This document shows, piece by piece, positions 9,393 through 55,263 of a DNA stretch of 64,000 nucleotides. The stretch covers positions 52,679 through 116,678 of the forward strand of contig JAFKEE010000043.1 of assembly GCA_017307505.1 (NCBI GenBank), read 5' to 3'. The stretch comes from Acidobacteriota bacterium. GTDB taxonomy: Bacteria > Acidobacteriota > Terriglobia > Bryobacterales > Bryobacteraceae. Under the pieces are notes generated by a model. The model did not search any database and was not told the origin of the DNA. It saw only the letters and a list, made by a program, of their open reading frames with translations. A program made the position numbers and the translations under genes. Within the stretch, counting starts at the first letter, position 1. Each line of letters opens with the position of its first letter.

Positions 9393-9412
9393 ATTTCATG
9401 GGGGAAAGAATC

Positions 9413-12400
9413 ATGAGTCGTCTATATCGCTACCTGGTTGTGATCGGTCTGCTGTTGGCGGGTGTGCTGAACACCAATGCCTTTGCACAGAGCTGTCCTT
9501 GCACAATCTGGGGGACAACCGCGGCACCGCTGGTTGCCGATAGCGGAGACGGGACAGCCGGTGAGTACGGTGTAAAGTTCAAGGTCGACGCCGATGGGCT
9601 GGTATCCGGTGTGCGCTTCTACAAGAGTGCCGCCAATACCGGCACGCATATCGGCAACCTGTGGAGCAGCACAGGCACGTTGCTCGCTTCGGCCACATTC
9701 ACAGGTGAGTCTGGCTCTGGCTGGCAGCAAGTTACCTTCAGCTCCCCTGTTGCGGTTGCGGCAGGCGCCACATACATTGCTTCGTATTATGCGCCCGCGG
9801 GCCACTACTCGTTTGATTCAGGCTTTTTCACTTCGGTTGGTGTCGACAATCCACCGTTACATGCGCTGGCCAACGGGGTCGACGGCACCAATGGCGTCTA
9901 TGCTTACGGCAGTGCAAGCACCTTCCCGACCTCCAGCTACAACGCCTCAAATTATTGGGTGGATGTTGTTTTCACTCCCACTGGCACGGCGCAGGGGCCC
10001 GCAGTAACCTCCTTCTCGCCGGCCAATGGCGCCTCAGGAGTTGTCACTTCCAGTGCCATCACTGTCACCTTCAACAAAGTGGTTGATGCAAGCACAATTA
10101 ATAGCACCACCTTCCAGCTCCTTGATGCTTCCAACAACGCCGTACCGGCATCGATCACCTACAGCAGCCTCACTCTGACTGCGGCTTTGCAGCCCACAGT
10201 GGCCTTGCTGCCCTCCACCAGCTATACCGTTGTCCTCAAGGGTGGCAGCACCAGCCCGACAGTTCGAGATCTGAATGGCATTGGCATGGCTGCGAATGTC
10301 ACGTGGTCTTTCGCCACAGCGAATCCGCCTGGCAGTTGCCCCTGCACCATCTGGAGTTCCGCTACTGTACCCGGCACAGTGGACAGTGGCGACGTCAACT
10401 CTGTCGAACTGGGCGTGCGGTTCCGCTCTGATGTGAGCGGCTACATCACCGGGATTCGATTCTACAAGAGCGCCGGCAACACCGGCACCCACGTTGGAAA
10501 TCTCTGGGACAACGCCGGCAATCTTCTTGCTTCCGCTGTCTTTGTTGGTGAATCCGGATCCGGCTGGCAGCAGGTCAACTTTACCAACCCGGTAGCGGTC
10601 ACGAGCGGCACGACCTACGTGGCGTCCTACTTTGCTCCAGCCGGCCACTATGCGTTCAACACTGGTGCCTTTAGCGGGACCCCGGTCGACAATGCTCCGC
10701 TGCATGCGCTCGCCGATGGGGCCGATGGACCTAATGGGGTTTATGCCTACACTGCCGCAAGCACCTTCCCGGCCAACACTTTTGGCTCAGCCAATTACTG
10801 GGTCGACGTGGTGTTTGCCACCACGCTGAGCTCCGATCCCCCGTATGTCACGAGCTATTCTCCGGGCAATGGAGCATCCAGTGTCAGCACGACCAGTTCT
10901 GTTGTTGTCGGTTTCAACACGGCTATGGACCCGACGACGATCAACGGCAGCAACATCCAATTGCTGGATCCGGCCCGCAATGTCATCAGCGCCTCGGTGA
11001 GTTACAACAGTGCAACGTTCACGGCTGTTCTGCAGCCTCTTGCTCAGCTCACCAGCGGAACGACATACACGGTGATTGTCAGAGGCGGTGGTGTTAGGAA
11101 CGTAGCTGGCACGCCACTGGCTGCCAGTTTCTCCTGGTCGTTCGCTACAGCGTCGTCCAACCCGCCTCCGGTAGTGGTTTCGTTTACTCCGGCCGGTGGC
11201 TCAACTGGTATCAGCGTCTCCACAGCCGTCACGGCTACGTTCAACAAAGCGCTCAACGCAACCACGGTGAACAGCGGCACCTTCCAGTTGCTGAGCCCGT
11301 CAAATGTTGCGGTCAGCGCGACAGTCACCTATAACAGCGGCACTCTGACAGCAACCCTGCAGCCCGCCGCGGCTCTGGCGTATTCGACGACGTATACCGC
11401 CATGCTCGTTTCGGGCGGGGTTAAGGATACCTCCGGAACTGCCCTCGCCTCCAACGTGGTCTGGACCTTCACCACTGGGGTGGCGCCTCCGCCCCCACCG
11501 TCCAACTGCCCCTGCAAGATCTGGGCAGCGTCCACCACGCCAGCAACCGTGGACTCGGGCGATAGCTCTCCCGTGGAGCTTGGAGTGAAGTTCCGCTCCG
11601 ATGCCAATGGGTACATCACTGGCATTCGCTTCTACAAGAGTGCCGCGAATGGAGGTACTCATGTCGGCAACTTGTGGACGACTGGCGGCACACTGCTTGG
11701 ATCAGCAACCTTCACGGATGAAACCGGCACCGGCTGGCAACAGGTGACCTTTAGCTCGCCCATCGCCATCACTGCGGGTACGACTTATGTGGCGTCCTAC
11801 TTCGCGCCTCAAGGCCATTATGCGTTCGACATCAACTACTTCGGCAACCTCGGAGTGGACAACGTGCCGATGCATGCATTGGCGAGTTCGGTCTCCGGCG
11901 GAAACGGCATTTTCAGTTACGGCTCCGCCAGTGTGTTCCCGACCAACTCCTACAGCGCCTCCAACTACTGGGTTGACGTCGTGTTCGTTCCGACTGTGTA
12001 TACAGCCGCTCCCACCCCCATCGCAACATCTCCGACCGCTGGCGCCACATCCGTAAATGTTGGGTCCTTGGTTAGGGCCACATTCAGTGTGCCTATGAGT
12101 GCTGCGACAATCAACAGCACCAACTTCCAGCTGACCGACTCTTCGAACAATGTTGTGAGTGGCACTGTAACTTACGTTGATGCCTCTTCCAGCCTCAAGT
12201 TCACACCGGTGACCGACCTGGTACCACAGACCACCTACACGGCCCGAGTGAAAGCGGCAGTGACCGATCTCTTTGGGAACTCCATGGGCCAGGACTTCAC
12301 CTGGACATTCACTACGGCCGCGGCACCTGCGAATGGTGGTCCCGGCGGTCCGATCCTGGTGATTGCTTCTTCCCAGAACCCCTACACGCGCTACTTCAGT

Positions 12401-15400
12401 GAAATCCTCTACAACGAGGGCATGAACGAGTTCACGGTGCAGGATGTTTCCACCGTGAATGCTGCGACTCTGGCGGCATACGATGTCGTGATTCTTGGTG
12501 ACATGCAGTTGACCGCCACCCAGGTGTCCATGATCTCTACCTGGGTGACCAACGGTGGACGCCTGATTGCCATGCACCCCGACAAGCAACTGGCCGGCCT
12601 GCTGGGTTTGACCAGCACGAATAACACCCTGGCGAATGCCTATTTGGCCGTGAATACCTCGTCCGGGCCTGGTGTGGGTATCGTGGGCCAGACGATGCAA
12701 TTCCATGGGACGGCCGATCTCTATACTCTGAGCGGAGCTACGGCTTTCGCGACACTGTACTCCAATTCAACGACAGCGACTTCTTCTCCAGCCGTCACGT
12801 TGACTGCGGCAGGAGCTGGGCAGGCTGCCGCCTTCACCTATGACTTAGCGAAGTCGGTCGTCCAGACAAGGCAGGGCAACCCGGCATGGTCTGGCATTGA
12901 TCGCGATGGGTTCATCGACCCGGCCGTCGGTTCCGGACAGATCCGCTCCGATGACCTGTTCTGGGGCAATGCGAGCTTCGACCCGCAACCCGACTGGGTC
13001 GACCTCAATAAGGTGGCTATCCCACAGGCTGACGAGCAGCAGCGGCTGTTGGCCAACCTTATCCTGCAGATGAACGCCAACAAGAAGCCCCTGCCTCGCT
13101 TCTGGTACTTCCCCAGCGGGTATAAGGCCGTCGTGATCATGACAGGCGACGACCACAACCTTGGTGGCACCTCCGGCCGCTTCAATCAGTACATTGCCGC
13201 CAGCCCAAGTGGATGCTCCGTTGCTGACTGGACCTGCATCCGCGGCACCTCATACATCTGGACAAACACGCCGATCTCCAACTACCAGACCTATGTGTCA
13301 CAGGGTTTTGAGATCGCGAACCATACGGATTCGATCCCGACTTGCACGAACTTCACGAAGGATTCTCTGGAATCCTCCCTTTCACTGCAACTGGCGCAGC
13401 TTGCGCAGAACTTCCCCGGCATGCCCGCGTCGAAGACCAACCGCAACCACTGCGTTCTGTGGTCCGACTACGACTCCGCTCCGCAAGTTTTTGTGAACCA
13501 CGGAATTCGTCTCGACACCAGCTACTACTACTGGCCTGGCGTCTGGGCTCAGGATCGGCCGGGTATGTTTACCGGCTCGGGAATGCCCATGCGCTACGCC
13601 GACCGCTTCGGAAATCTCATTGATGTCTTCCAGGCCACCACGCAGATGACCGACGAGTCGGGTCAGACTTACCCGAAGAACATCGACACGTTGCTGGACA
13701 ACGCCATTGGTTCACTGGGCTACTACGGAGCCTTCACAGCCAACATGCATACGGACACTGCCACGTCCAGCGGATCCGACCTCATTGTGGCGTCGGCTCA
13801 GGCACGCGGCGTACCTGTTATCGCAGCTCAGCAGATGCTCACCTGGCTCGATGGCCGCAACGCATCATCGTTCAGTGGGGTTACGTGGAACGGCAGCACC
13901 CTCAACTTCGCAGTGACGGCCAATTCCGCTGCCCGCAACCTGCGTGGCATGATTCCGGCGAACTCCACAGGGGGGGCGCTGAATAGCCTGAAGCTGAACG
14001 GGAGCGCCATTACCTTCACCACGCAGACTATCAAGGGCGTTCAGTACGCATTCTTCGCCGCCTCTACAGGCACTTACCAGGCCACCTATGGAGCTGGCGG
14101 CGCCTTCTCCATCTCCGGCACCTTGACCGGCGGCGCCGCCGTCGGTACCAAGGTGACGATCACCGGGCCGTCGAGCACGGTTGTCACCACCGATGGAGCA
14201 GGGCAGTACCTCGTTACGGGGTTAACGAACGGCACTTACACGGTCACCCCGAGCGCAACGGGCTTTACCTTCACACCCGCGAGTCAGACCATCACGATTT
14301 CCGGGGCCAGCGTCAGCGGTGCCAACTTCACCTCTGTCGTCATTCCGACATATACGATCAGCGGGAACGTGTCGGGGGCCGGTGGTGTCATCGCCACTGT
14401 CACTCTGAGCGGTGCAGCCAGCAACAGCACGCTGACCGACGCCAGCGGGAATTACTCCTTCGCCAATCTATATAATGGTGCTTACACGGTGGCGGTGGCC
14501 CGCAGCGGCTATACCTTTACGCCAGCCAGTCGGAGCATCACTATCAGTGGCGCAAATGTCACTGGTGCCAACTTCGCCTCCGCCGTCGCCACCTCCACAA
14601 CGGTAGCTCAGGATGCGATGGTGTATACCGACAACCTGTCAGCCAGCACTACGATCACCAGCCCCGCACTCTCCACGACGGTTGGTAATCAGCTCCTGTT
14701 AGCCTTCATCGGGGCCGACAACTCCGGCGTATCGCCGAACATCACAGTCACCGGAGTCACCGGCGGCGGGCTCACGTGGGAACTTGTTCGTCGCACCAAC
14801 GTGCAACTGGGGACGGCTGAAGTATGGCGCGCCTTTGCGCCGAACCCGCTCACCAATGTGACCGTGTCGGCCACTTTCTCAATTGCCGCACCGGAAGCAA
14901 GCATTACGGTGATCTCCTACACCGGCGCCGACTTCTCCGGGACTAACGGTTCTGGCGCCATCGGTGCTACTGGTAGCGGCAACGCACTGAACGGAGCGCC
15001 GACAGCCAGCCTTACTACCACGAGAGACAACTCTCTAGTCGTCGGCGTTGGCTGGGATTGGGACAGCCCCGATCAAAGGGTTCCGGGCACGAACCAAACG
15101 GTAATCCGCCAACCGGCCACGCACAATGCTGGAGGGTGGGTGCAGCGGCAAAATGCGGCGACACCAGCCAGTGGTACGTCAGTCACTATCAACGATACGG
15201 ACCCCTCGACAGATCGCTACAATCTGACCATCGTCGAGATCAAATCGATCCAGCCAACCTATTCGATCTCAGGAACGATCAGCGGCGCTGGCGGCAATGG
15301 GGCCACGGTGAACCTGACTGGTCCTGCCACCTCAACCGTGACGGCCAACACTTCCGGGGTCTTTACCTTCACTGGCCTTTACAACGGGACCTATACCGTC

Positions 15401-16771
15401 ACGCCCAGCAAGACCGCCTACACCTTTACGCCGACCAGTCGGTCCGTCTCGGTCAGCAGCGCGAATGTTACTGGAGTGACCTTTAGTTCCACTGGAACTC
15501 CTGTCGCTTCGTTGTCGCCGACCTCCTTGAGCTTCGGCAACCAGAACCTCAACACGACCAGCGCCGCCCAGGTGGTCGTGCTCACGAACACCGGTGCAGC
15601 GAGCATGAGCATCAGCAGCATTGCGATCTCGGGCACAAATTCGAGCAACTTCGCGCGAACCACTACTTGCGGGACCTCACTGGCGATCGGTGCAAGCTGC
15701 AACATCAGCGTCACGTTCACACCTTCCGCCGCGGGCACCCGCACCGCAACGCTCTCTGTCACGGACAATGCCACCGGCAGCCCGCAAACAGTCTCCCTTA
15801 CTGGCGTTGGTTTTGCGCCAGTCGCCAGCCTGTCGCCCACTTCTGTTTCATTCGGCAACCAGCGAGTGAACACCACTAGTAGCCCGAGCGTTGTGACTCT
15901 GTCCAACACCGGCACTGCGAGCATGGCGATCACCAGCATCTCGCTTTCGGGAACGAATGCCTCCAACTTCGCACAAACCAATAACTGCGGGACCTCGCTG
16001 GCGGCCGGCGCCAATTGCGCGATCAGCATCACATTCACGCCCAGCGCCACTGGCACTCGCACCGCTACGCTCTCGGTTGTAGACAATGCTTCCGGGAGTC
16101 CTCATAACGTTTCACTCTCCGGCACCGGAGCTGTCCCTGTGGTCAGTCTCTCGCCGACTTCAGTTGCCTTCGGCAATCAGGCAGTGAACACAACCAGTAG
16201 CGCCCGTAGCATCACTCTGTCGAACACAGGCGGCGCATCCATGGCGATCAGCAGCATCACGCTGACCGGCACGAACGCAGGCGACTTCGCCCGGACCACC
16301 ACGTGCGGCGCTACATTGGCCGGCGGTGCGAGCTGCACCATCAGTGTCACCTTTACGCCGACGACGGGTGGTGCGAAGACGGCATCCGTCTCTATCACTG
16401 ACGATGCAACGGGCAGTCCGCACACGGTGGCCCTCACCGGCACGGGCACCGCGGTATCGGTGAACCCGACGAGTCTTGCGTTCGGCAACCAGCGGATCAA
16501 TACAACCAGTTCCGCTCGAACCGTCACGTTGAGTAATCTTGGGACAACGACACTCACGGGTGTTGCCATCTCCCTAACGGGCACCAATGCCACCAATTTT
16601 GCGCAAACCAACAATTGCGGTTCGTCCCTCGCGGCCGGCGCAAGCTGCACCATCAGTGTGACTTTCCGGCCCACCGCGCTCGGCACTCGGACTGGGACCC
16701 TCCAGATTGTCAATTCCGATCCGACTAGCCCTCAGCTGGTAAGCTTGACGGGCAATGGCACCCTGTTCTAG
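9413..16771 (+). CDS. Giant exported multidomain protein (DUF4082, SbsA-Ig, deacetylase-like, ASH repeats)
   Basis: A 2,452-residue secreted protein. ATG 9413 has GGGGGAAAG upstream and begins a signal peptide ending near NTNAFAQ; in-frame TTG/ATG at 9389/9398 are less suitable. Approximate domains: DUF4082-like modules at 27-187, 307-469 and 697-859, each opening with CPC.IW; Ig-like SbsA (Big_5) modules at 196-301, 476-579, 586-689 and 865-969; a ThuA/glutamine-amidotransferase-like fold at 980-1226 (AAYDVVILGDMQL); a NodB-like region at 1231-1493 (VIMTGDDHN, later GFEIANHTDS); carboxypeptidase-regulatory-like modules at 1566-1641, 1645-1722 and 1949-2026; a beta-rich module between the second and third; four choice-of-anchor-D (ASH) repeats at 2033-2452. 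No PEP-CTERM or LPXTG tail is present, so it is probably released or held non-covalently. Deacetylase activity is uncertain. Confidence 0.8.
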   Translation: MSRLYRYLVVIGLLLAGVLNTNAFAQSCPCTIWGTTAAPLVADSGDGTAGEYGVKFKVDADGLVSGVRFYKSAANTGTHIGNLWSSTGTLLASATFTGESGSGWQQVTFSSPVAVAAGATYIASYYAPAGHYSFDSGFFTSVGVDNPPLHALANGVDGTNGVYAYGSASTFPTSSYNASNYWVDVVFTPTGTAQGPAVTSFSPANGASGVVTSSAITVTFNKVVDASTINSTTFQLLDASNNAVPASITYSSLTLTAALQPTVALLPSTSYTVVLKGGSTSPTVRDLNGIGMAANVTWSFATANPPGSCPCTIWSSATVPGTVDSGDVNSVELGVRFRSDVSGYITGIRFYKSAGNTGTHVGNLWDNAGNLLASAVFVGESGSGWQQVNFTNPVAVTSGTTYVASYFAPAGHYAFNTGAFSGTPVDNAPLHALADGADGPNGVYAYTAASTFPANTFGSANYWVDVVFATTLSSDPPYVTSYSPGNGASSVSTTSSVVVGFNTAMDPTTINGSNIQLLDPARNVISASVSYNSATFTAVLQPLAQLTSGTTYTVIVRGGGVRNVAGTPLAASFSWSFATASSNPPPVVVSFTPAGGSTGISVSTAVTATFNKALNATTVNSGTFQLLSPSNVAVSATVTYNSGTLTATLQPAAALAYSTTYTAMLVSGGVKDTSGTALASNVVWTFTTGVAPPPPPSNCPCKIWAASTTPATVDSGDSSPVELGVKFRSDANGYITGIRFYKSAANGGTHVGNLWTTGGTLLGSATFTDETGTGWQQVTFSSPIAITAGTTYVASYFAPQGHYAFDINYFGNLGVDNVPMHALASSVSGGNGIFSYGSASVFPTNSYSASNYWVDVVFVPTVYTAAPTPIATSPTAGATSVNVGSLVRATFSVPMSAATINSTNFQLTDSSNNVVSGTVTYVDASSSLKFTPVTDLVPQTTYTARVKAAVTDLFGNSMGQDFTWTFTTAAAPANGGPGGPILVIASSQNPYTRYFSEILYNEGMNEFTVQDVSTVNAATLAAYDVVILGDMQLTATQVSMISTWVTNGGRLIAMHPDKQLAGLLGLTSTNNTLANAYLAVNTSSGPGVGIVGQTMQFHGTADLYTLSGATAFATLYSNSTTATSSPAVTLTAAGAGQAAAFTYDLAKSVVQTRQGNPAWSGIDRDGFIDPAVGSGQIRSDDLFWGNASFDPQPDWVDLNKVAIPQADEQQRLLANLILQMNANKKPLPRFWYFPSGYKAVVIMTGDDHNLGGTSGRFNQYIAASPSGCSVADWTCIRGTSYIWTNTPISNYQTYVSQGFEIANHTDSIPTCTNFTKDSLESSLSLQLAQLAQNFPGMPASKTNRNHCVLWSDYDSAPQVFVNHGIRLDTSYYYWPGVWAQDRPGMFTGSGMPMRYADRFGNLIDVFQATTQMTDESGQTYPKNIDTLLDNAIGSLGYYGAFTANMHTDTATSSGSDLIVASAQARGVPVIAAQQMLTWLDGRNASSFSGVTWNGSTLNFAVTANSAARNLRGMIPANSTGGALNSLKLNGSAITFTTQTIKGVQYAFFAASTGTYQATYGAGGAFSISGTLTGGAAVGTKVTITGPSSTVVTTDGAGQYLVTGLTNGTYTVTPSATGFTFTPASQTITISGASVSGANFTSVVIPTYTISGNVSGAGGVIATVTLSGAASNSTLTDASGNYSFANLYNGAYTVAVARSGYTFTPASRSITISGANVTGANFASAVATSTTVAQDAMVYTDNLSASTTITSPALSTTVGNQLLLAFIGADNSGVSPNITVTGVTGGGLTWELVRRTNVQLGTAEVWRAFAPNPLTNVTVSATFSIAAPEASITVISYTGADFSGTNGSGAIGATGSGNALNGAPTASLTTTRDNSLVVGVGWDWDSPDQRVPGTNQTVIRQPATHNAGGWVQRQNAATPASGTSVTINDTDPSTDRYNLTIVEIKSIQPTYSISGTISGAGGNGATVNLTGPATSTVTANTSGVFTFTGLYNGTYTVTPSKTAYTFTPTSRSVSVSSANVTGVTFSSTGTPVASLSPTSLSFGNQNLNTTSAAQVVVLTNTGAASMSISSIAISGTNSSNFARTTTCGTSLAIGASCNISVTFTPSAAGTRTATLSVTDNATGSPQTVSLTGVGFAPVASLSPTSVSFGNQRVNTTSSPSVVTLSNTGTASMAITSISLSGTNASNFAQTNNCGTSLAAGANCAISITFTPSATGTRTATLSVVDNASGSPHNVSLSGTGAVPVVSLSPTSVAFGNQAVNTTSSARSITLSNTGGASMAISSITLTGTNAGDFARTTTCGATLAGGASCTISVTFTPTTGGAKTASVSITDDATGSPHTVALTGTGTAVSVNPTSLAFGNQRINTTSSARTVTLSNLGTTTLTGVAISLTGTNATNFAQTNNCGSSLAAGASCTISVTFRPTALGTRTGTLQIVNSDPTSPQLVSLTGNGTLF

Positions 16772-16819: not shown

Positions 16820-16845
16820 GCCCGGTGGAGCAACCTCCACCGGGC
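16820..16845 (+). terminator. Strong 11-bp hairpin after the giant gene
   Basis: Perfect inverted repeat: GCCCGGTGGAG at 16820-16830, CAAC loop at 16831-16834, CTCCACCGGGC at 16835-16845, 48 bases past the giant gene's stop. The T tract is poor (ACTGTTGACTT follows), but the stem is strong. It overlaps a GTG at 16825 in frame with the next gene, which argues against that codon as the start. Confidence 0.7.
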
Positions 16846-16926
16846 GACACTGTTGACTTGGCCGGCGCTCCCATCTCTTCGGACCTGCCCGCAGAGCACA
16901 CGATAAGTGCCCGCCCGAAACCCACT

Positions 16927-18303
16927 ATGGTTACAAACCGAACATCAGAAGTGCGCGCGGCTGACCTCGAATTCCGCAATCACTATAGATACCCCACCGG
17001 TTCAGTTGGTGTTCACGTATCGCTTGGATCGGCGCTCTGCGGATTCTTTCGTTTTGGTTCCTCTATCGGTTTCGGCCATTGCGCAGATGGCGTAACCAGC
17101 GAATCCAAGAACTCGAAACTACCCATCGTCAAGACCGCAAGGTCTGATGACTCGGGCCAACTAGAACTACCATTTGATCCCAATGAGGTTGCGGACAACT
17201 TGAGGAGGGAGAGGTATTATTCGTCCTCAACTTCTCAGGGCAGTGGCATCCTGAGCGCGAGTTGGATTCGGAACGCTTATTATACTGTCCGAAAATTCCT
17301 GCCAGTCCATGTGAGGAAATACTTGCAACGGGCGCGCCTGGCAGATTGGGATCGTATCCCATTCCCATCGTGGCCGGTTGACGTTTCAGTCGATCTGATG
17401 TTTGAAGAGATGATGCGTCTCGTCCTGAACGCCAGAGGCGGCTCACCTCTCCCCTTTATCTGGTTTTGGCCTCACGGCCATTCGGGAGCAATGATGCTCA
17501 CGCATGACGTTGAAGAAGCCGCCGGACGAGATTTCTGCCCCGTCCTCATGGATTTAGTCGAAACCGCCGGCTTTCGTTCTTCGTTCCAGATCATCCCTGA
17601 AGAACGTTACGAAGTGACTACGCACTTACTCGACTCTCTCCGCAAAAGAGGCCACGAGGTCAATGTTCACGACCTAAATCACGATGGTCATCTCTTCCGC
17701 GAACGGACCGAGTTTCTGAGGCGGGCTGCGCGCATCCGTCATTATCTGCAGGATTTCAGGGCGGAGGGTTTCCGATCGGCAATTCTCTACCGTAACTCCG
17801 AGTGGATTAATGATCTAGGGTGCGCATATGACATGAGTATACCTAACGTTGCTCATCTCGATCCCCAACGAGGCGGCTGTTGCACGACTTTCCCCTACTT
17901 TCTTGGGGATGTTATAGAACTCCCACTCACGACAACGCAAGATTACTCACTGTTTCACATTCTCCAAAAGCACACTCTCGATCTGTGGGAGCAACAAATG
18001 AAGGCGATTCTCCAGCGGCACGGACTGATCAGCTTCAATATACATCCTGATTATATTCTCAGTAGGCAGAATCGTTCTGTGTTTGTAGCCCTCCTGGCAT
18101 CGATGGCCGCTCACCGGCAACGTTACAATCTTTGGGCGGCATTGCCAGGAGAGGTAAACAAGTGGTGGCGAATGCGTGCAAAGATGGAGATTGTCGCTGA
18201 CGGGGGGCGCCTTACCATTAGGGGGCAGGGGGCGGAACAAGCACAAATCGCCTATGCCGCACTTGAGGGCGATCGGTTAGTCTATCGACTAGCCGATCAA
18301 TGA
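16927..18303 (+). CDS. Polysaccharide deacetylase-like protein (NodB fold)
   Basis: Probably removes acetyl groups from an exopolysaccharide or its precursor. NodB signatures are clear: THDVEE near residue 192 (metal-binding Asp) and HDLNH near residue 246 (H-x3-H), preceded by the family-like segment FIWFWPHGHSGAMML; later ELPLTTTQDYS and SFNIHPDYI fit the C-terminal motifs. The start is uncertain. Family-like sequence begins around LPFDPNEVADNLRRERYY (about 17170); ATG 16927 is used because the longer GTG at 16825 lies inside a hairpin. Residues 1-75 may be non-native. No signal peptide is obvious, so it may act in the cytoplasm, as deacetylases of exosortase-linked exopolysaccharide loci are often annotated. 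It is followed closely by a GT4 gene. Confidence 0.75.
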   Translation: MVTNRTSEVRAADLEFRNHYRYPTGSVGVHVSLGSALCGFFRFGSSIGFGHCADGVTSESKNSKLPIVKTARSDDSGQLELPFDPNEVADNLRRERYYSSSTSQGSGILSASWIRNAYYTVRKFLPVHVRKYLQRARLADWDRIPFPSWPVDVSVDLMFEEMMRLVLNARGGSPLPFIWFWPHGHSGAMMLTHDVEEAAGRDFCPVLMDLVETAGFRSSFQIIPEERYEVTTHLLDSLRKRGHEVNVHDLNHDGHLFRERTEFLRRAARIRHYLQDFRAEGFRSAILYRNSEWINDLGCAYDMSIPNVAHLDPQRGGCCTTFPYFLGDVIELPLTTTQDYSLFHILQKHTLDLWEQQMKAILQRHGLISFNIHPDYILSRQNRSVFVALLASMAAHRQRYNLWAALPGEVNKWWRMRAKMEIVADGGRLTIRGQGAEQAQIAYAALEGDRLVYRLADQ

Positions 18304-18316
18304 GGGCGGATCGACA

Positions 18317-19555
18317 ATGACGCACGCAACCACTTCCGACGAACTTACGATCAGCATGTCCACCGCTTCCCGCGTAGAACCTCGACGGCCGCTCCGCGTC
18401 TGCACAGTCGCTTACGCCTTCCATGATTCAGATTCGCGCATCATGCGCTACACCCATGCTTTGAAGTCCCGTGGTGATGTCGTGGACGTGATTGCGTTGC
18501 GCGAATCAGGCAAGCCGAAGGTATACGTAAGCGAGGGGGTTCAAGTAATTGGAGTGCAGCCTCGCGAGGTGAATGAGCAGTCGCAGTTCTCCTACTTGAT
18601 GCGCATTGTTCTCTTTTTTTTACGAACAATGATCATACTGAGCTGGCGCCACCTGCGTGTAGGCTATGACGTCATCCATGTCCACTCGGTACCCGATTTC
18701 CTTGTCTTTGCGGCAATACTTCCCAAGTTGATGGGGGCAAGAATTGTACTGGATATTCACGATCTTTTGCCGGAGCTCTACGCCAGTAAATTCTCGATGG
18801 GTGGCCGGTCAATCATTGTTCGCCTCCTTCTTGTGGTAGAGCGATTCTCTATTCTCTTCTCCGATCACGTAATAACCGCTAATGACCTTTGGCATGAGAA
18901 ATTGGTCGCTCGCGCAGTTCCCAGGGCGCGAGCCACTGCGTTGATGAACTATCCGGATCTGGAAGTGTTCACTCCCCGCGGCAGAAACCGCAATGATGAT
19001 CGGTTTGTCATGATCTACCCTGGAAGTCTGAACTGGCATCAAGGATTAGATATTGCATTGCGCGCATTTGCGTTGATTAAAGACAGGGCACCGTTGAGTG
19101 AGTTCCATATTTACGGTACCGGTCCAGCTCTGGAAGAGCTGGTTACGCTTGCGAAACGCTTAGGCTTGAGTGAGAGAGTTCGATTTTCTGGGATGCTCCC
19201 TCTTCGAGAGATTGCGCAGGTAATTGAGAATGCTGATTTGGGTGTGGTCCCGAAGCGGAAGAATCATTTTGGGAATGAAGCTTTCAGTACTAAGACTCTC
19301 GAGTTCATGGCAATGGGTGTCCCTGTTCTCGTATCTGATACCAGAATAGATAAATACTATTTTGATGAATCCGTGGTACGGTTTTTTGATGGCGAAAATA
19401 TTGAAGATCTCGCAGCTCAAATGCTTGCACTGATAGAAGATAGCAAGGCGCGTGAGTGCCTAAAGAGCGCGGGTTTGCAGTTTGTTCAAAGAAACTCGTG
19501 GGATTCGAAAAAACCGCAGTATTTTAATATTATCGATGCTTTGGCGACTAACTGA
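18317..19555 (+). CDS. Glycosyltransferase family 4
   Basis: Retaining GT-B glycosyltransferase of 412 residues. The N-terminal half carries the acceptor domain with DVIHVHSVPDFLVFA and VLDIHDLLPELYASKFS; the C-terminal half carries the donor domain with IYPGSLNWHQGLDIALRAF (phosphate-binding region), FHIYGTGPALEEL and the E-x7-E-like segment EAFSTKTLEFMAMGVPVL. A hydrophobic stretch around 95-115 (IVLFFLRTMIILSW) suggests membrane association, as in capsule enzymes. It starts 13 bases after the deacetylase gene with GAGGG upstream. A sample inside the gene (19261-19320) counts 25 of 60 G+C, far below the later operons, so the gene is probably of foreign origin. The sugar is not known. Confidence 0.88.
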   Translation: MTHATTSDELTISMSTASRVEPRRPLRVCTVAYAFHDSDSRIMRYTHALKSRGDVVDVIALRESGKPKVYVSEGVQVIGVQPREVNEQSQFSYLMRIVLFFLRTMIILSWRHLRVGYDVIHVHSVPDFLVFAAILPKLMGARIVLDIHDLLPELYASKFSMGGRSIIVRLLLVVERFSILFSDHVITANDLWHEKLVARAVPRARATALMNYPDLEVFTPRGRNRNDDRFVMIYPGSLNWHQGLDIALRAFALIKDRAPLSEFHIYGTGPALEELVTLAKRLGLSERVRFSGMLPLREIAQVIENADLGVVPKRKNHFGNEAFSTKTLEFMAMGVPVLVSDTRIDKYYFDESVVRFFDGENIEDLAAQMLALIEDSKARECLKSAGLQFVQRNSWDSKKPQYFNIIDALATN

Positions 19556-19585: not shown

Positions 19586-20818
19586 ATGTTGCAACCTTCA
19601 CACATGGAGCAACGCGAGAGTATTACCGCCGAACATCAGGGGCCAGTCTTCACCGGTCAGGTAGGAGCTGTAGTGATTGGGGGTGATCACCAGGGTCTCG
19701 GCATCGTGCGCAGTCTGGGTAGGAAGGGTGTACCTGTATGCGTGATTGACGATGAACATTCGATATCCCGTTACTCACGCTACACGACTCACCACATCCG
19801 GCTTGACGAGCTACGGGATGAGACTCGCACCGTTGAGCAACTCCTCGAGATAGGTCAGCGTCTTGGGCTGAAGGGCTGGGTCCTGTTCCCCACCCGCGAA
19901 GAGACGGTGGCCGCGCTGTCGAAACACCGCGATCGGTTGACGCAGTACTTCAGGGTGCCAACACCTGCTTGGGACTCTATACAGTGGGCGTGGGACAAGC
20001 GGAATACATACACACTTGCGGGGCAACTCGACATACCCACGCCGAAAACTTGGTACATCAATCGCAGGGAAGAGCTTCTTGATCTTAACCTCACCTTTCC
20101 GGTGGCTTTGAAGCCCGCTATCAAGGAGCACTTCGTCTATGCCACCAAGGCGAAGGCGTGGAGAGCGGATGACCTCCAGCAGTTGCTGAATCTTTATGAC
20201 AAGGCCACTGCCCAGGTCGGCGGCGGTGAGATCATGATCCAGGACTTGGTGCCTGGTGACGGTACCCATCAGTTTGCGTACTGTGCGCTATTTAAGGACG
20301 GCACTTCCATCGCCAAGATGCACGCCTGCCGGCGGCGGCAGCATCCAGCCGAATTCGGACGAGCCAGTACTTACGTAGAGACCATAGAGATGCCTGAGCT
20401 TGAAGCGCTTGCCGAGAAATTTCTCCGTGCTATTTCCTTCTATGGATTGGTTGAGGTTGAGTTTAAGCGTGATCCGCGTGATGGACGTCTTAAACTCCTC
20501 GACGTGAACGCCCGGACCTGGGGGTACCACACACTTGGACGCTCCGCCGGAGTCGACTTCCCCTACCTGCTGTTTGCTGATCAAGTAGGCCAGAGCATTG
20601 TGCCTTGCGCCGCTTCTCCTGGGGTATCGTGGGTACGCTTGGCGACCGATATACCTACAGCAATGGTCGAGTTAGTAAGGGGACGGCTAAACTTCGGTCA
20701 GTACGTGAAGTCTCTCTGGCAGGCTCGGACCGAATCTGTCTTCGCGATGGACGATCTGGCCCCTGGAATGATCGAATTGGGGTTGATTCCGTATCTGTTT
20801 GTTAAGAGGGGTTTTTAA
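19586..20818 (+). CDS. ATP-grasp domain protein (carboxylate-amine ligase-like)
   Basis: A 410-residue ATP-grasp enzyme, expected to join a carboxylate to an amine or thiol through an acyl-phosphate. Seen: N-terminal Rossmann segment AVVIGGDHQGLGIVRSLG, the ATP-binding FPVALKPAIKEHFVYATKA with Lys, IMIQDLVPGDG, and the metal-binding VEVEFKRDPRDGRLKLLDVN in which E and N coordinate Mg. ATG 19586 has AGGAAAG upstream; ATG 19604 is an alternative. The stop overlaps the next ATG by one base (TAATG), coupling it to the phosphatidylserine-decarboxylase-like gene. ATP-grasp ligases of this kind are found in exosortase/exopolysaccharide loci; the substrates are undefined. Joint action with the FemAB-like protein to attach an amino acid is a guess. 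Confidence 0.78.
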   Translation: MLQPSHMEQRESITAEHQGPVFTGQVGAVVIGGDHQGLGIVRSLGRKGVPVCVIDDEHSISRYSRYTTHHIRLDELRDETRTVEQLLEIGQRLGLKGWVLFPTREETVAALSKHRDRLTQYFRVPTPAWDSIQWAWDKRNTYTLAGQLDIPTPKTWYINRREELLDLNLTFPVALKPAIKEHFVYATKAKAWRADDLQQLLNLYDKATAQVGGGEIMIQDLVPGDGTHQFAYCALFKDGTSIAKMHACRRRQHPAEFGRASTYVETIEMPELEALAEKFLRAISFYGLVEVEFKRDPRDGRLKLLDVNARTWGYHTLGRSAGVDFPYLLFADQVGQSIVPCAASPGVSWVRLATDIPTAMVELVRGRLNFGQYVKSLWQARTESVFAMDDLAPGMIELGLIPYLFVKRGF

Positions 20819-21690
20819 TGGCGCTATCTCCAAATCTTCTTTCCTCCGGCCAGGCAATACTCTGGGGCGTTCTCGTCGCCCTGGCTTGCACCGTACCTCT
20901 TGCTTGGAAATGGCAGCTCGGAGTACGGCGCGTCGCCACCTTCGTCCTGGCCGTCGGCGCCGCATGCGGTGTCTCCCTAGCCTGGCTGGAACCTCAACTG
21001 GCGCTGGCAGCTCGTGCGTCCATCCTCGCGGGCTGCACAATTTGCTTGTCTGCGCTGTACCTTGCCTATCGGTTCTACCGGGATCCGGAGTGCACCCCTC
21101 CCACCCAACCGGGCGCGATCGTCAGCCCGGCGGAAGGACTGGTCATCTACGTAAAGCGGTCGGAAGGCGGAGAGATCCCGGTTTCCACCAAGCATGGACG
21201 GCATTGCCCGTTGTCCGAGCTGCTGAAGACATCATTTTATTCTTCGGACGTCTGGGTGGTAGGAATCAGCATGAGCCTGCTCGACGTTCACGTCAACCGC
21301 GCCCCAATCGCCGGGAAGGTGATCTTTCAAAAGCACTTTCCTGGACTCTTCGGTTCCCTGCGGCTACCCGAACGTACCTTTGACAACGAGCGAGCGACGA
21401 CCATCGTCGCATCCGGTGACCTGCAAATCGCCATCGTGCAGATCGCATCGCGCCTGGTCCGGCAAATCGTCTCTTACGTCAAGGTCGGAGACGATGTGGC
21501 GTTCACCCAACGCATTGGGGCCATTCGTCTCGGTTCGCAGGTCGATGTCGTCATTCCGGTTCGCGACGACATAGAGGTGACTGTTGCCGTCGGTGATCAC
21601 GTGAAGGCCGGCGAGTCCGTGCTTGCTTACTGTGCCCGGTCTGCCGGCAAACTATCAGACCGACACGCTGTCACCGGCAAACATGCGTAA
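20818..21690 (+). CDS. Phosphatidylserine decarboxylase-like pyruvoyl enzyme
   Basis: A 290-residue membrane-associated protein. Residues 1-90 hold three or four hydrophobic segments ending in YLAYRFYRDPE. The soluble part matches short Psd proteins: IVSPAEGLV, DVHVNRAPIAG near residue 156, and the self-cleavage site RLGSQVDV with Gly239-Ser240, where the serine would become the pyruvoyl group. It would decarboxylate a phosphatidylserine-type lipid to an ethanolamine lipid, or an analogous seryl group. It lies inside a glycan locus, overlapping the ATP-grasp gene by one base and followed after five bases by a FemAB-like gene. Whether it is the housekeeping Psd is unknown; a pathway-dedicated copy seems likelier given the neighbours (inference). 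Confidence 0.8.
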   Translation: MALSPNLLSSGQAILWGVLVALACTVPLAWKWQLGVRRVATFVLAVGAACGVSLAWLEPQLALAARASILAGCTICLSALYLAYRFYRDPECTPPTQPGAIVSPAEGLVIYVKRSEGGEIPVSTKHGRHCPLSELLKTSFYSSDVWVVGISMSLLDVHVNRAPIAGKVIFQKHFPGLFGSLRLPERTFDNERATTIVASGDLQIAIVQIASRLVRQIVSYVKVGDDVAFTQRIGAIRLGSQVDVVIPVRDDIEVTVAVGDHVKAGESVLAYCARSAGKLSDRHAVTGKHA

Positions 21691-21695
21691 TTTTA

Positions 21696-22733
21696 ATGGC
21701 CTGTTACACGCTCTGCCCGTTGACGGATCCGCGCTGGCAACAACTGTTGGAGGTGCATGAGTCGGCAACTGTCTTTCATTCGCCCGACTGGTTACGGGCG
21801 CTCCAGTGCACCTACGGTTACGAACCCGTAGTTTTAACAACTTGCCCACCGGACACTAACCTGACCAATGGGCTTTTGCTGTGCTCCGTCCGGAATCTGT
21901 TTGGCGGCCGGCGCTTGGTCTCGCTTCCCTTCTCTGATCATTGTGAGCCCCTGGCTGGAGATGATAGCGAGATGTGGGCACTGCTGGCGGCGGCTGCGAG
22001 CTATTGTAGCGATCTCGGGCGAATCCATCTCGAGATCCGGCCTCTTCACGTTCTTCCCCCATCCCAGCTCGGATTTCAGCCGACTGCGGCATATTACATT
22101 CACCAACTGGAACTATCTGAATCCGCAGACAACGTATTTGCTCGCTTCAGCAAGGGTTCTGTCCAACGTAAGATTACCAAGGCTGAGCATGAAGACCTTA
22201 CCTGTGAAGAGGGCAATTCCCAAAAGTTGATTGAGGCGTTTTACGGCCTGCTGCTTCTGACACGGCGGCGCCATCGGATCCCACCTCAACCCATCGAGTG
22301 GTTCCAGTCTTTGGCCCGTTTGCTGGGAGACGCATTCAAGGTGCGTGTGGCCTTCAAATCAGGAAGGCCTGTCGCAAGCATCATCACACTGCAGTCGACC
22401 CAATCCATGGTCTACAAGTACGGCTGTTCTGATGAGGCTTACTGGAACCTGGGCGGACTTCAGCTTCTTTTGTGGAAGGCCATTCAGCAGGCAGTGTCGC
22501 ATGGGTGCAAGCACTTTGATTTCGGACGTTCCGACGTAGATCACATTGGATTGGTGGAGTTTAAGGATCGTTGGGGCGCCAAGCGAACATTGCTCTCCTA
22601 CTGGACGACACCCTCTACCAACGAGACGCGCAGAGACGCGATGGACAGCCTGTTGGCGAGACGAGCCTTCTCTCTGGTACCAGATCGGATTCTAGTAGTA
22701 CTAGGCCGTATGCTGTATAGGTACATCGGATAA
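21696..22733 (+). CDS. FemAB/GNAT-like aminoacyltransferase
   Basis: A 345-residue protein with the double GNAT layout of FemAB-like enzymes of exosortase-linked exopolysaccharide loci. Seen: HSPDWLRALQCTYGYEPVVL near the N-terminus, VSLPFSDHCEPL, FARFSKGSVQRKITKAE in the middle, and a second GNAT half with FKSGRPVASIITLQ, VYKYGCSDEAYWNLGG and FDFGRSDVDHIGLVEFKDRW. FemAB proteins transfer an amino acid from aminoacyl-tRNA to a peptidoglycan precursor; relatives in these loci are thought to modify glycans or lipids, but no substrate is proven. It is the last gene of a tight three-gene run and is followed by 283 bases without a gene. Confidence 0.78.
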   Translation: MACYTLCPLTDPRWQQLLEVHESATVFHSPDWLRALQCTYGYEPVVLTTCPPDTNLTNGLLLCSVRNLFGGRRLVSLPFSDHCEPLAGDDSEMWALLAAAASYCSDLGRIHLEIRPLHVLPPSQLGFQPTAAYYIHQLELSESADNVFARFSKGSVQRKITKAEHEDLTCEEGNSQKLIEAFYGLLLLTRRRHRIPPQPIEWFQSLARLLGDAFKVRVAFKSGRPVASIITLQSTQSMVYKYGCSDEAYWNLGGLQLLLWKAIQQAVSHGCKHFDFGRSDVDHIGLVEFKDRWGAKRTLLSYWTTPSTNETRRDAMDSLLARRAFSLVPDRILVVLGRMLYRYIG

Positions 22734-23016: not shown

Positions 23017-24171
23017 ATGATACTTGCTGGCGTAAAAAAAAGCGTGCCGTTGCTCGACCTGGCAACCCTGCACGCACCCCTTCGTGACGAAATCATCGCC
23101 GAGATCACCCGCATCGTCGACTCACAGAAGTTCATCATGGGCGAGGACGTCAAGCAATTGGAGCAGCTTGTCGCTTCCTATACCGGAACACCTTACGCCA
23201 TCGGTTGCGCCTCTGGGTCGGATGCTCTATTCCTGGCCCTGGCGGCCTGTGGGGTCGGGCCCGGAGACCGGGTACTGACCACCAGCTACAGTTTCTTCGC
23301 CACGGCGGGAGCCATCACCCGCGTGGGCGCCACCCCGGTGTTCGTCGACATCGATCCCGTTACCTACAACATTGACCCCGTCCTAGTTGCCCAGGCTCTG
23401 GAGCGGCATCCGGGCATCAAGGCGATCATCCCCGTCCACCTCTTTGGCGCCTGCGCCGACATGGATCCCATTCTGGAACTCGCGAAGGCTCACAACTGCG
23501 CTGTCATCGAAGATGGCGCACAGTCCATCGGTGCCGAATACAAGGGTCGCAAAGCCCAGAGCATGGGCGAGGTCGGCTGCATCAGCTTCTTCCCTAGCAA
23601 GAACCTTGGCGGTTTCGGCGACGGTGGCATGGTGACGACCAACGACGAGGGGCTTGCCCGGAAACTGGCCGCCCTCCGAGTACACGGCAGCCTGAAGAAG
23701 TACTACCACGAATGGGTGGGCGTCAATTCCCGTCTCGACACGATGCAGGCAGCCATTCTCAAGGTGAAGTTCCGCTACCTGGATTCCTGGACAGAGGCCC
23801 GCAACCAACACGCCAGCCTCTACCGCCAGATCCTCGGCGACTCCGGAACGCCCATCGGTCTGCCGGTGACCACACCCTACCAGACCCGCCATGTCTATAA
23901 TCAGTTCGTCATCCGCAGTTCCGAGCGCGACGCGCTGAAGGCATGGCTGCAGGAGCACGGCGTTGGCACCGAAGTGTATTACCCGCTGCCGCTTCATCTC
24001 CAGCCGTGCTACCTCGATCTCGGCTACCACGAGGGCGACCTGCCCCACAGCGAAGCGGCCGCCAAGGAGACTCTGGCGCTCCCCGTCCACCCGGCGATGT
24101 CCACCGACGACATCGAGTATGTTTGCGAAGTGATCAAATCCTATTTCCTGAACCCCGCGAGGCAAGCTTAA
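23017..24171 (+). CDS. WlbC-like PLP aminotransferase (DegT/DnrJ/EryC1/StrS family)
   Basis: A 384-residue sugar aminotransferase. Seen: DLATLHAPLRDEIIAEI, the substrate-loop CASGSDALFLALAACGVGPG, VIEDGAQSIGAEYKG with the PLP-contacting Asp, and FFPSKNLGGFGDGG where Lys195 should form the PLP aldimine. The pattern fits the 3-oxo-sugar aminotransferases WlbC/WbpE, which convert UDP-3-keto-GlcNAcA to the 3-amino sugar with glutamate. That product is the substrate of the acetyltransferase half encoded at 5.5 kb, so the two loci probably share a pathway although 16 kb apart. ATG 23017 follows AGGAAG. The next gene starts three bases after the stop. Other sugar aminotransferase substrates cannot be excluded. 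Confidence 0.85.
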   Translation: MILAGVKKSVPLLDLATLHAPLRDEIIAEITRIVDSQKFIMGEDVKQLEQLVASYTGTPYAIGCASGSDALFLALAACGVGPGDRVLTTSYSFFATAGAITRVGATPVFVDIDPVTYNIDPVLVAQALERHPGIKAIIPVHLFGACADMDPILELAKAHNCAVIEDGAQSIGAEYKGRKAQSMGEVGCISFFPSKNLGGFGDGGMVTTNDEGLARKLAALRVHGSLKKYYHEWVGVNSRLDTMQAAILKVKFRYLDSWTEARNQHASLYRQILGDSGTPIGLPVTTPYQTRHVYNQFVIRSSERDALKAWLQEHGVGTEVYYPLPLHLQPCYLDLGYHEGDLPHSEAAAKETLALPVHPAMSTDDIEYVCEVIKSYFLNPARQA

Positions 24172-29827: not shown

Positions 29828-30295
29828 ATGATCCAACGTGTGTACATTTGGAGAGTACTGGCTTTGGGCTGGGCAGTGAATATATTCATGATGTCCACAG
29901 AGGGGTTTGGTGGGGGCTTTAGCCGAATCCTCCTGGCGCAGCTGTTCGATTTCCTGGGAGTCTCTGTCTCTCTGGAGGTGTTTGATATTATTCACCTCGC
30001 TCTGCGCAAACTAGCCCACCTGCTCGAATACTCAATCTTTGGTTTTCTTCTCTATCGCTCATTCCGGGATCAGGACCACCCCGCCTGGCAACCCAACCGT
30101 GCAGCTTGGGCTCTCGCTACCGCGGCAGCATACTCACTTACTGACGAACTACACCAGGCCATGGTCCGCGGCCGGGCAGCCTCGCTCCTGGACAGCCTCA
30201 TCGACTCCACCGGGGCACTACTCACAATTGCGCTGATCTACCTTTTCTCGACCAAATCGCGGCTTGGCCAATCCGTCACTTCCCATCGAGGGTAA
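29828..30295 (+). CDS. VanZ-like membrane protein
   Basis: A 155-residue protein with about four transmembrane helices. The VanZ signature is present: LRKLAHLLEYSIFGFLLYR in the middle helix region and TDELHQAMVRGRAASLLDS, the conserved D/E-x2-HQ followed by a RxGxxxDxxxN-like segment. VanZ proteins give low-level teicoplanin resistance, but most members in exosortase loci have no proven role. It lies 64 bases after the kinase gene on the same strand. Two more VanZ-type proteins occur in the window (33.2 and 56.3 kb). Confidence 0.8.
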   Translation: MIQRVYIWRVLALGWAVNIFMMSTEGFGGGFSRILLAQLFDFLGVSVSLEVFDIIHLALRKLAHLLEYSIFGFLLYRSFRDQDHPAWQPNRAAWALATAAAYSLTDELHQAMVRGRAASLLDSLIDSTGALLTIALIYLFSTKSRLGQSVTSHRG

Positions 30296-54594: not shown

Positions 54595-55263
54595 CTAGGC
54601 GCCCGTGTGCGGGCCGGGCAGGTACTGCTTGACGGCCGGATAGATGGAGTTCAGGAAGTCCAGTGCCTCCCGGTCGGCCGTTTGTTCGGTGTCCGTGATG
54701 GGCACGACGATACGCACCATGGCCGTGTCGCTGCGCTGGTAACGCAGGGAATCGGCAACCAGGTAGAACTTGGCCATGTACTCGCTGGCGACAGAACGGT
54801 AGGGCGTCAGATACCAGTAGTAGACGATGCTCTTGGCCGAGCCATGGGAGACGATGTAGCGGTTGACGTTGACCGGCGCCGGCGCGCCCGGCACGTTGAT
54901 GTCGATGATGCTGCTGGTTTCCTGCGTCCAGCCGTTGGCCGGCAGGCAGTGCTTGGGCGAATGCGGCGCGACGCCTGTGCGCTGCGTGCGGAAGAAGGCG
55001 ATGTAAAGGTTGGCCGGCTCCGTGTAGGCCGGGTTCTTGTAGTCGCGCACCAGCGTACCGTCAGCCTTCAGCTCGTCCAGAACTTCCTTCTCCATCGGGT
55101 AATCCCGGATGGCGGTCCAGGCGCCCGCGGTCTGGCTGATCCCCGACAAAGGCTGCAGGTCGGGCACATACTCGGTTCTTTTCATGGAGTATTCGGCGCC
55201 GATCGCCGCTACCAGCAGCAGCGCTCCGGCGAGGAAATGGGGAGAGCGGAAAAGACCGGTCAT
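54595..55263 (-). CDS. EpsI-family exosortase-associated protein
   Basis: A 222-residue protein of the EpsI (DUF3485) family. A membrane helix near the N-terminus (LAGALLLVAAIGAEYSM) is followed by a periplasmic domain with IAFFRTQRTGVAPHSPKHCL and PANGW, the family core motif around Cys106, and by YYWYLTPYRSVASEYMAKFY. In many exosortase systems EpsI is fused to or next to the exosortase and needed for polysaccharide biosynthesis or sorting; its exact reaction is unknown. It starts one base inside the exosortase 2 stop, so the two are translationally coupled. Confidence 0.85.
   Translation of the reverse strand: MTGLFRSPHFLAGALLLVAAIGAEYSMKRTEYVPDLQPLSGISQTAGAWTAIRDYPMEKEVLDELKADGTLVRDYKNPAYTEPANLYIAFFRTQRTGVAPHSPKHCLPANGWTQETSSIIDINVPGAPAPVNVNRYIVSHGSAKSIVYYWYLTPYRSVASEYMAKFYLVADSLRYQRSDTAMVRIVVPITDTEQTADREALDFLNSIYPAVKQYLPGPHTGA

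What the first reader, a model, noticed from the sequence alone, without database searches (positions are those of the whole stretch)
19586..22733. ATP-grasp / Psd-like / FemAB-like cassette in a glycan locus
Three genes with 1-base overlap and 5-base gap encode a ligase, a pyruvoyl decarboxylase and an aminoacyltransferase-like GNAT. This set could load an amino acid (for example Ser) onto a carrier, decarboxylate it, and transfer an ethanolamine-like group to lipid or polysaccharide. Such a route would be new; Psd in particular is normally a housekeeping lipid enzyme.
Basis: inference. Interest (0 to 1): 0.7.

Follow-up and report, generated by a model that had tools for sequence, protein, structure and literature searches.

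The report
Ligase–decarboxylase pair of glycan loci
In bacteria of at least eight phyla a ligase gene lies directly beside a distinct, predicted membrane-bound relative of phosphatidylserine decarboxylase, mostly among sugar-polymer genes, and the two enzymes likely put an amino acid on a surface glycan and then decarboxylate it rather than make ordinary membrane lipid.

Summary
In detail: ATP-grasp (19586-20818), Psd-like (20818-21690) and FemAB-like (21696-22733) genes with a 1-base overlap and a 5-base gap. The genome has a second, short Psd beside pssA. The window copy belongs to a separate Psd-like clade (PSDL), mostly with an extra hydrophobic N-terminal segment. An ATP-grasp gene lies in 18 of 20 wide PSDL loci, directly adjacent in 15, and in 0 of 62 other psd loci; the adjacent copies fall in one ATP-grasp clade. 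FemAB is not a fixed partner (3 of 20). PSDL also occurs in a lineage where 0 of 61 genomes match the PS synthase PssA at E <= 1e-10. So the core is a co-inherited ligase-decarboxylase pair whose substrate is probably not PS. I infer that the ATP-grasp enzyme amidates a lipid-linked glycan with an amino acid whose alpha-amino acid end stays free, and that PSDL removes its carboxylate to leave an amine. The pairing is well supported; the chemistry is inferred. A general exosortase link is not seen (8 of 21 genomes).

The parts
19586..20818 (+). ATP-grasp ligase (410 aa), first member of the conserved pair
20818..21690 (+). Psd-like pyruvoyl decarboxylase (PSDL, 290 aa), second member; predicted N-terminal helices 5-31, 36-55, 63-86; SPAEG, DVHVNRAP and LGS/QVD motifs
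   Evidence: PF02666 127.7 bits; alignment; AF2 pLDDT 85; separate clade; residue counts
21696..22733 (+). FemAB/GNAT aminoacyltransferase-like protein, optional third gene
   Evidence: PF13480, PF02388, TIGR03019 below cut-off; next to PSDL again in L142, but in only 3 of 20 wide loci
16825..18303 (+). polysaccharide deacetylase-like protein, frequent neighbour
   Evidence: PF01522 and TIGR03006 below cut-off; relatives in 12 of 20 PSDL loci, 0 of 62 controls
18317..19555 (+). GT4 glycosyltransferase, frequent neighbour
   Evidence: PF00534; relatives in 12 of 19 PSDL loci, 0 of 62 controls
23017..24171 (+). DegT/DnrJ sugar aminotransferase (possible source of an amino sugar)
   Evidence: PF01041; a relative also lies beside FemAB in L142
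32299..33252 (+). exosortase of the same locus (context, not a fixed partner)
   Evidence: PF09721 150.8 bits; exosortase in 8 of 21 PSDL genomes

Best explanation
The window carries a co-inherited pair of an ATP-grasp ligase and a separate clade of Psd-like decarboxylase within a glycan locus, and the pair likely adds an amino acid to a membrane-bound glycan precursor and then decarboxylates it to leave a free amine. Shown: the pairing, its spread, the separate Psd clade, the second short psd beside pssA, and the presence of PSDL in a lineage without a PssA match. Inferred: the ATP-grasp enzyme joins a carboxylate to an amine so that an alpha-amino acid end stays free (for example the beta-carboxyl of Asp on an amino sugar, as the D-aspartate ligase AslA does on peptidoglycan, or the side-chain amine of Lys on a uronic acid). 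PSDL, held in the membrane by its predicted helices, would then remove the alpha-carboxylate through its pyruvoyl group and leave, for example, a beta-alanyl or aminoalkyl amide. FemAB, where present, could cap or extend that amine. Amino sugars could come from the deacetylase-like or aminotransferase neighbours.
For: Second psd next to pssA in the same genome. ATP-grasp in 18 of 20 wide PSDL loci, 15 directly adjacent on one strand, against 0 of 62 other psd loci. ATP-grasp tree: a 100/99 clade of 23 rows holds 17 of 17 adjacent, 2 of 2 nearby, 2 of 4 second copies and 2 of 16 unlinked ones; in L014 the genes are 5.6 kb apart, yet its ATP-grasp falls in the clade. Distances of the two proteins correlate: r 0.52 over 17 genomic pairs, 0 of 5000 permutations. 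PSDL mostly has three or four hydrophobic N-terminal segments (18 of 21) where other Psds have at most two (62 of 63). Not tied to PS: 13 of 13 genomes with a further Psd have a PssA match of at least 94 bits, 5 of 5 with PSDL alone have none above 31. In one of those five and 60 relatives, 0 of 61 match PssA at E <= 1e-10, yet two of the 61 carry PSDL, each with an ATP-grasp in its locus. Glycan context: deacetylase-like 12 of 20, GT4 12 of 19, one or the other in 15 of 19, 0 of 62 controls. Precedents: the Psd relative PsiD decarboxylates Trp (PMC6121855, passages); AslA is an ATP-grasp using D-Asp activated as beta-aspartyl phosphate (PMC4155827, passage).
Against: No substrate or product is known, and the order (ligase first) is inferred. 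The Gln after the pyruvoyl-site Ser, which sets PSDL (22 of 22) apart from other bacterial Psds (Arg in 53 of 53), is shared with archaeal Psds (9 of 10), so it does not by itself speak for another substrate (titles). L005 has PSDL without an ATP-grasp, and L117, a distant basal row, has none within its 1.5-kb flanks. The ATP-grasp family also lives without PSDL: 16 of the 18 genomes with a match in the phylum sample, two of them with rows inside the pair clade (L119, L123); a single clade of adjacent copies only is rejected. The window copy has Glu where 63 of 63 other Psds have Asp in SPxDG; its effect on self-processing is unknown. The PSDL model found no PDB match at E <= 0.001. The structural neighbours of the ATP-grasp do not single out a substrate. 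PssA absence in the other four PSDL-only genomes could be missing sequence, and the E. coli-type PssA check had no positive control.
Confidence: 0.4

Rival explanations
1. Decarboxylase first: PSDL makes an ethanolamine-type lipid and the ATP-grasp ligase joins its amine to a carboxylate (uronic acid or peptide), so that a glycan or other molecule is anchored to the membrane by an amide to a PE-like lipid.
For: PSDL is predicted to be membrane-bound; the partner has an ATP-grasp fold; the locus makes polysaccharide.
Against: A further Psd is present in 13 of 18 genomes, so a dedicated PSDL would be unnecessary unless its lipid differs; where no PssA is found no PS is expected.
Confidence: 0.23
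2. PSDL is a second PS decarboxylase that supplies PE locally, for instance as the lipid to which the exosortase of the locus attaches proteins, as PssA and PssD are needed for archaeosortase ArtA in Haloferax.
For: An exosortase lies 10.6 kb downstream and a second one at 55263-56135. PssD is needed for ArtA processing in archaea (PMC7157517, passages). PSDL shares Gln241 with archaeal Psds and groups nearer to them than to other bacterial Psds. One PSDL (L016) just reaches a PS decarboxylase cut-off (183.2 against 183).
Against: Exosortase in only 8 of 21 PSDL genomes. None was found in 19 wide PSDL loci, though those flanks end at 10 kb and the profile had one seed. No PssA match lies on the window's contig; PSDL occurs where no PssA is found.
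Confidence: 0.17
3. PSDL acts on a serine phosphodiester that belongs to the glycan (phosphoserine to phosphoethanolamine on a lipid-linked sugar), and the ATP-grasp enzyme is a separate glycan amidating enzyme.
For: Closest to known Psd chemistry; does not need PssA-made PS; glycan context.
Against: Leaves the co-inheritance with the ATP-grasp enzyme unexplained; no transferase for phosphoserine was noticed among the genes scanned (not searched for as such).
Confidence: 0.13
4. The two genes are neighbours by common transfer of glycan loci and have no joint reaction.
For: PSDL is patchy: 2 of 396 genomes of the phylum sample and 3 of 246 of another phylum at E <= 1e-30, so it may travel with glycan loci.
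Against: Adjacency across eight phyla while other neighbours vary, the matching ATP-grasp clade, and both genes kept in L142 though on opposite strands.
Confidence: 0.07

Closest known systems
Housekeeping phosphatidylserine decarboxylase (short type; L001 copy in this genome)
   Same: PF02666, His of DVHVNR, Gly-Ser cleavage site
   Different: Separate clade, mostly an extra N-terminal hydrophobic segment, Gln for Arg after the Ser, Glu for Asp in the window copy, and an ATP-grasp partner instead of pssA. NCBIfam cut-offs do not tell them apart: the L001 copy also misses all of them.
Archaeal Psd (archaetidylserine decarboxylase, TIGR00164)
   Same: Gln after the Ser (9 of 10 archaeal rows), nearest neighbours of PSDL in the tree
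   Different: No ATP-grasp in the loci seen; the window copy and the four other PSDLs scanned score 143 to 177 against a cut-off of 230
PsiD-type amino-acid decarboxylases of the Psd family (PMC6121855, passages)
   Same: A Psd-family enzyme with a non-lipid substrate and an altered cleavage-site motif
   Different: Fungal tryptophan pathway; no ATP-grasp partner in the cluster described; not compared by sequence here
AslA/Aslfm D-aspartate ligase (PMC4155827, passage)
   Same: ATP-grasp that adds an amino acid by its side-chain carboxyl to an amine; JGI names 36 of the 120 listed homologues of our ATP-grasp D-aspartate ligase (my count)
   Different: Acts in peptidoglycan; no decarboxylase partner known to me; sequence of AslA not compared here
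Archaeosortase ArtA with PssA and PssD (PMC7157517, passages)
   Same: A Psd homologue in a surface-anchoring context
   Different: PssA is needed there; exosortase is not a fixed partner of PSDL
XrtA/PEP-CTERM exopolysaccharide loci
   Same: Chain-length protein, autokinase, deacetylase-like, FemAB-like, exosortase
   Different: These members score below the XrtA model cut-offs; no PSDL link was seen in the papers listed or in the 2006 PEP-CTERM/EpsH paper (terms searched)

Membership tests
Psd superfamily PF02666 | Match above the curated cut-off | tested here: met
   127.7 bits, cut-off 22
Psd superfamily PF02666 | Conserved His (DVHVNR) and Gly-Ser self-cleavage site (roles recalled) | tested here: met
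   H158, G239, S240 present; invariant in 22 of 22 PSDL rows
Phosphatidylserine decarboxylase proper | Score above an NCBIfam equivalog cut-off | tested here: inconclusive
   Window copy best 153.2 against 183, all 11 listed models below cut-off; but the genome's own short copy also misses all, and one of four other PSDLs just passes, so the test does not discriminate
Phosphatidylserine decarboxylase proper | Asp of SPxDG (role in self-processing recalled, from no call) | tested here: not met
   Glu106 in the window; Asp in 63 of 63 other Psds and in 19 of 22 PSDLs, one gap
Phosphatidylserine decarboxylase proper | A PS synthase in the same genome | tested here: inconclusive
   Window genome has PssA. 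No strong PssA (TIGR00473) in 5 of 5 genomes with PSDL as only Psd, nor in any of 61 genomes around one of them; the E. coli-type check lacked a positive control
Phosphatidylserine decarboxylase proper | Converts PS to PE | not testable with these tools
   needs assay or complementation
ATP-grasp ligases | ATP-grasp fold with conserved acidic, Asn and Arg residues of the nucleotide-metal site (roles recalled) | tested here: met
D-aspartate ligase AslA | Sequence membership and beta-carboxyl Asp specificity | not tested
   only source names; AslA itself was not compared
Exosortase/archaeosortase lipid-anchor PssD (NF038088) | Score above cut-off 240 | tested here: not met
   102.5 bits
Exosortase/archaeosortase lipid-anchor PssD (NF038088) | Constant co-occurrence with an exosortase | tested here: not met
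   8 of 21 genomes, many of them metagenome assemblies of untold completeness
XrtA FemAB (TIGR03019) | Score above cut-off 260.35 | tested here: not met
   113.9 bits

The most novel reading that the evidence does not exclude
A widespread two-enzyme route builds decarboxylated amino acids directly on lipid-linked surface glycans: an ATP-grasp enzyme loads the amino acid by its side chain and a membrane-bound Psd-like enzyme strips its carboxylate, so that a whole clade labelled phosphatidylserine decarboxylase does not act on phosphatidylserine at all.
Probability: 0.36. Interest if true: 0.82.

Novelty: new variant of a known kind. Interest (0 to 1): 0.62.

Why it matters
Proteins of this clade are labelled phosphatidylserine decarboxylase in public data (names), which would lead readers to predict PE synthesis where there may be none. 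If the pair modifies glycans, it predicts a surface chemistry (amine-ended amino-acid amides) that I did not find in the papers searched, in at least eight phyla. It would be a further case, beside PsiD, of the Psd fold being turned to another amino-acid substrate. The claim can be tested with one complementation and one glycan analysis.

Tried and rejected
Exosortase-linked PE supply as the general role: rejected as general, because an exosortase is in only 8 of 21 genomes. The three-gene cassette as a fixed unit: rejected, FemAB in 3 of 20 wide loci. The Pfam GNAT positions (21 genomes) agree: PF13480 lies within 10 kb of PSDL only in G000, G067 and G073, by comparison, and about 12 kb away in G587.

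Degenerate pseudo-enzyme: not favoured; His and Gly-Ser are kept, and Glu106 recurs in 11 of 120 database homologues (a first count by text pattern gave 10).

Gln241 as a mark of a new substrate: given up, because archaeal Psds share it. Equivalog cut-offs as a test: given up, because the short copy L001 misses them too. After these two controls I lowered the main reading from 0.42 to 0.40 and raised the PS-decarboxylase rival from 0.15 to 0.17.

Led nowhere: viral contigs (no relative) and plasmids (no match); a sequence search of the PDB with the PSDL profile (none) and a fold search (none at E <= 0.001; absence shows nothing); promoter and terminator scan (no more than in shuffles). Paper searches for a Psd/ATP-grasp/exosortase/FemAB/polysaccharide link listed no paper whose title or abstract start describes such a pair; some searches listed only 20 of 26, 20 of 40 and 12 of 16. 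Passages of PMC12419801 (VanZ and lipid head groups), PMC11631085 (reference list only) and PMC2922099 (reference list only) did not describe it. Polar lipids of Solirubrobacter: no paper held.

Rows dropped or special: L020 starts inside PSDL, so its upstream side is unseen (kept in the n of 20 as a miss). L117 (stops inside the match; no ATP-grasp within 1.5 kb) and L116 (short locus, ATP-grasp adjacent) are outside the n of 20. I drew the line between PSDL (L003-L020) and other Psds (L021-L082) from the rank list and the neighbourhoods; the tree, which has 21 of those 62 rows plus L001, agrees. Profiles were built partly from the PSDL loci themselves, which favours hits there.
Full report
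Observation. The three ORFs are as described. They are the last of five co-directional genes with gaps of at most 30 bases (deacetylase-like 16825-18303, GT4 18317-19555, ATP-grasp, Psd-like, FemAB-like), followed 283 bases later by a sugar aminotransferase, SDR, GT2, WecB, a chain-length protein, an autokinase and an exosortase. The locus is therefore an exopolysaccharide locus with XrtA-like features.

Two Psds. The genome (9.39 Mb, 75 contigs) has two PF02666 genes: the window copy and a 208-aa copy on another contig. The latter is followed by a 300-aa ORF that overlaps the genome's 119.5-bit PssA match (TIGR00473; G000:C17:311997-312581). I take the short copy as the housekeeping enzyme (inference). 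The host is probably an acidobacterium, because the short copy groups with Acidobacteriota rows (88/81; inference).

The PSDL clade. Homologues of the window protein are numerous (3949 at E <= 0.001 among the 7998 scored, ordinary Psds probably included). In a tree of 52 Psds (with 21 of the 62 other-Psd loci) the PSDL rows group together (96/92 with the distant L117, 85/75 without it); three archaeal rows branch next, and the other bacterial Psds lie on the far side of a 99/99 branch. In 22 PSDL rows the residue after the pyruvoyl-site Ser is Gln; in 63 other Psds it is Arg in 54 and Gln in 9, and all 9 are archaeal by record title, while the 53 bacterial ones have Arg. Gln is thus an archaeal-like feature, not proof of a new substrate. 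By a hydropathy count, 18 of 21 PSDLs have three or four hydrophobic N-terminal segments, while 62 of 63 others have at most two. The His and the Ser are kept in all. The window copy and L007 have Glu for Asp at residue 106, as do 11 of 120 database homologues. The predicted structure has helices at 5-31, 36-55 and 63-86. NCBIfam equivalog cut-offs do not separate the two kinds: the genome's short copy misses them too, and one of four further PSDLs scanned just passes one.

The pair. I took 20 wide PSDL loci: L003-L020 from the scan of one genome for each of 84,980 species, plus L114 and L142. An ATP-grasp homologue is in 18, missing in L005 and in the truncated L020. It is directly adjacent on the same strand in 15 (gap or overlap at most 78 bases, except L007, where long ORFs overlap by 255); in L003 it is 1.1 kb away, in L014 5.6 kb, and in L142 on the other strand about 2.4 kb away. 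Titles put adjacent cases in Acidobacteriota, Actinomycetota, Verrucomicrobiota, Latescibacterota, Bacteroidota, Planctomycetota, Omnitrophota and Fermentibacterota. None of 62 other psd loci of similar length has one (Fisher p 3e-16). In the database lists, 10 of the 16 best PSDL hits (P0002-P0017) share their longest-contig length with a listed ATP-grasp hit, which suggests the same contigs.

Co-inheritance. In a tree of 39 ATP-grasps, all 17 adjacent copies (window and L116 included) and both nearby ones lie in one 23-row clade (100/99), with two of four second copies and two of 16 unlinked ones. A clade of the adjacent copies alone is rejected, as second and unlinked copies lie among them. 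Protein distances of the two partners correlate (r 0.52 over 17 genomic pairs, 0 of 5000 permutations; 0.91 with 11 inferred database pairs added). Shared ancestry of the hosts contributes to this. The ATP-grasp family is also used elsewhere: 18 of 396 genomes of the phylum sample have a match at E <= 1e-30, only 2 of them with PSDL. One unlinked copy lies near a FemAB (L125), another near an exosortase (L126).

FemAB and other neighbours. FemAB-like genes are in 3 of 20 wide loci: L009, L015, L142. In L142 the order PSDL, FemAB, aminotransferase repeats that of the window, in a genome from the sample of relatives of the Solirubrobacteraceae genome G061. Deacetylase-like genes are in 12 of 20 and GT4 in 12 of 19, with 0 of 62 controls for both. 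Other neighbours in single loci scanned are formyltransferase-like, radical SAM, AMP-binding, asparagine synthase-like and FAD enzymes. An exosortase is in 8 of 21 genomes and in none of the 19 loci, whose flanks of at most 10 kb would have missed the window's own (10.6 kb).

Is PS the substrate? Of 18 genomes, 13 have a further Psd, and all 13 have a PssA match of at least 94 bits (8 over the curated cut-off of 107); the 5 with PSDL alone have none above 31 bits (Fisher p 1e-4). As the further Psd and pssA lie within 1 kb in 9 of the 13, missing sequence could explain this. I therefore tested the lineage of one of the five: 0 of 61 genomes (itself included) has PssA at E <= 1e-10, and 55 of 61 have no PF02666 match. 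Of the six that do, two are PSDL (G061, G756), each with an ATP-grasp in its locus, and four are longer proteins (open frames of 428-604 aa) without BLAST similarity to PSDL or the short Psd. The completeness of these genomes was not told. The other four PSDL-only genomes were not tested in this way. The E. coli-type PssA gave 0 of 69, but without a positive control, so it shows little.

Novelty. Six paper searches (three of them listed only in part) showed no description of the pair, and the 2006 PEP-CTERM/EpsH paper has none of the six terms looked for. Most subscription journals are not in the library. The archaeal PssA/PssD-ArtA link (PMC7157517, passages) is the nearest published idea seen, and it fits these data less well because PssA and exosortase are not constant.

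Noticed in passing
window 55263-56135 (-): A second exosortase, closest to the XrtD, XrtW and XrtA models but below their cut-offs; a third, weaker match lies on contig C48.
   Followed up: partly
window 29828-30295 and 33249-34343: Two VanZ-like genes; the second carries a LamG-like domain before VanZ and overlaps the end of the exosortase gene by 4 bases.
   Followed up: no
window 9389-16771 (+): A 2460-aa repeat protein with choice-of-anchor D domains (four stretches) directly upstream of the glycan operon.
   Followed up: no
L003, L004; P0126, P0127, P0131: Second ATP-grasp copies lie on the other side of PSDL, and some database proteins look like tandem ATP-grasp fusions, which may mean two ligation steps in some loci.
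   Followed up: partly
L136-L139: Four longer PF02666 proteins (open frames 428-604 aa) in a lineage without a PssA match, with no BLAST similarity to PSDL or the short Psd.
   Followed up: no
L009, L012, L019: A shared order ATP-grasp, PSDL, formyltransferase-like, B12-radical SAM in three unnamed bacteria (families by similarity; Pfam on L009 only).
   Followed up: partly
L021, L022, L023, L028, L030, L032, L037, L045, L058: Archaeal Psds share the Gln after the pyruvoyl-site Ser with the bacterial PSDL clade, which may point to an archaeal-type origin of PSDL.
   Followed up: partly
L142:1627-2901 and 11176-12267: The same protein start occurs twice, on either side of the glycan genes; duplication or assembly effect.
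   Followed up: no
L126 (G309): An ATP-grasp relative without PSDL lies near an exosortase.
   Followed up: no
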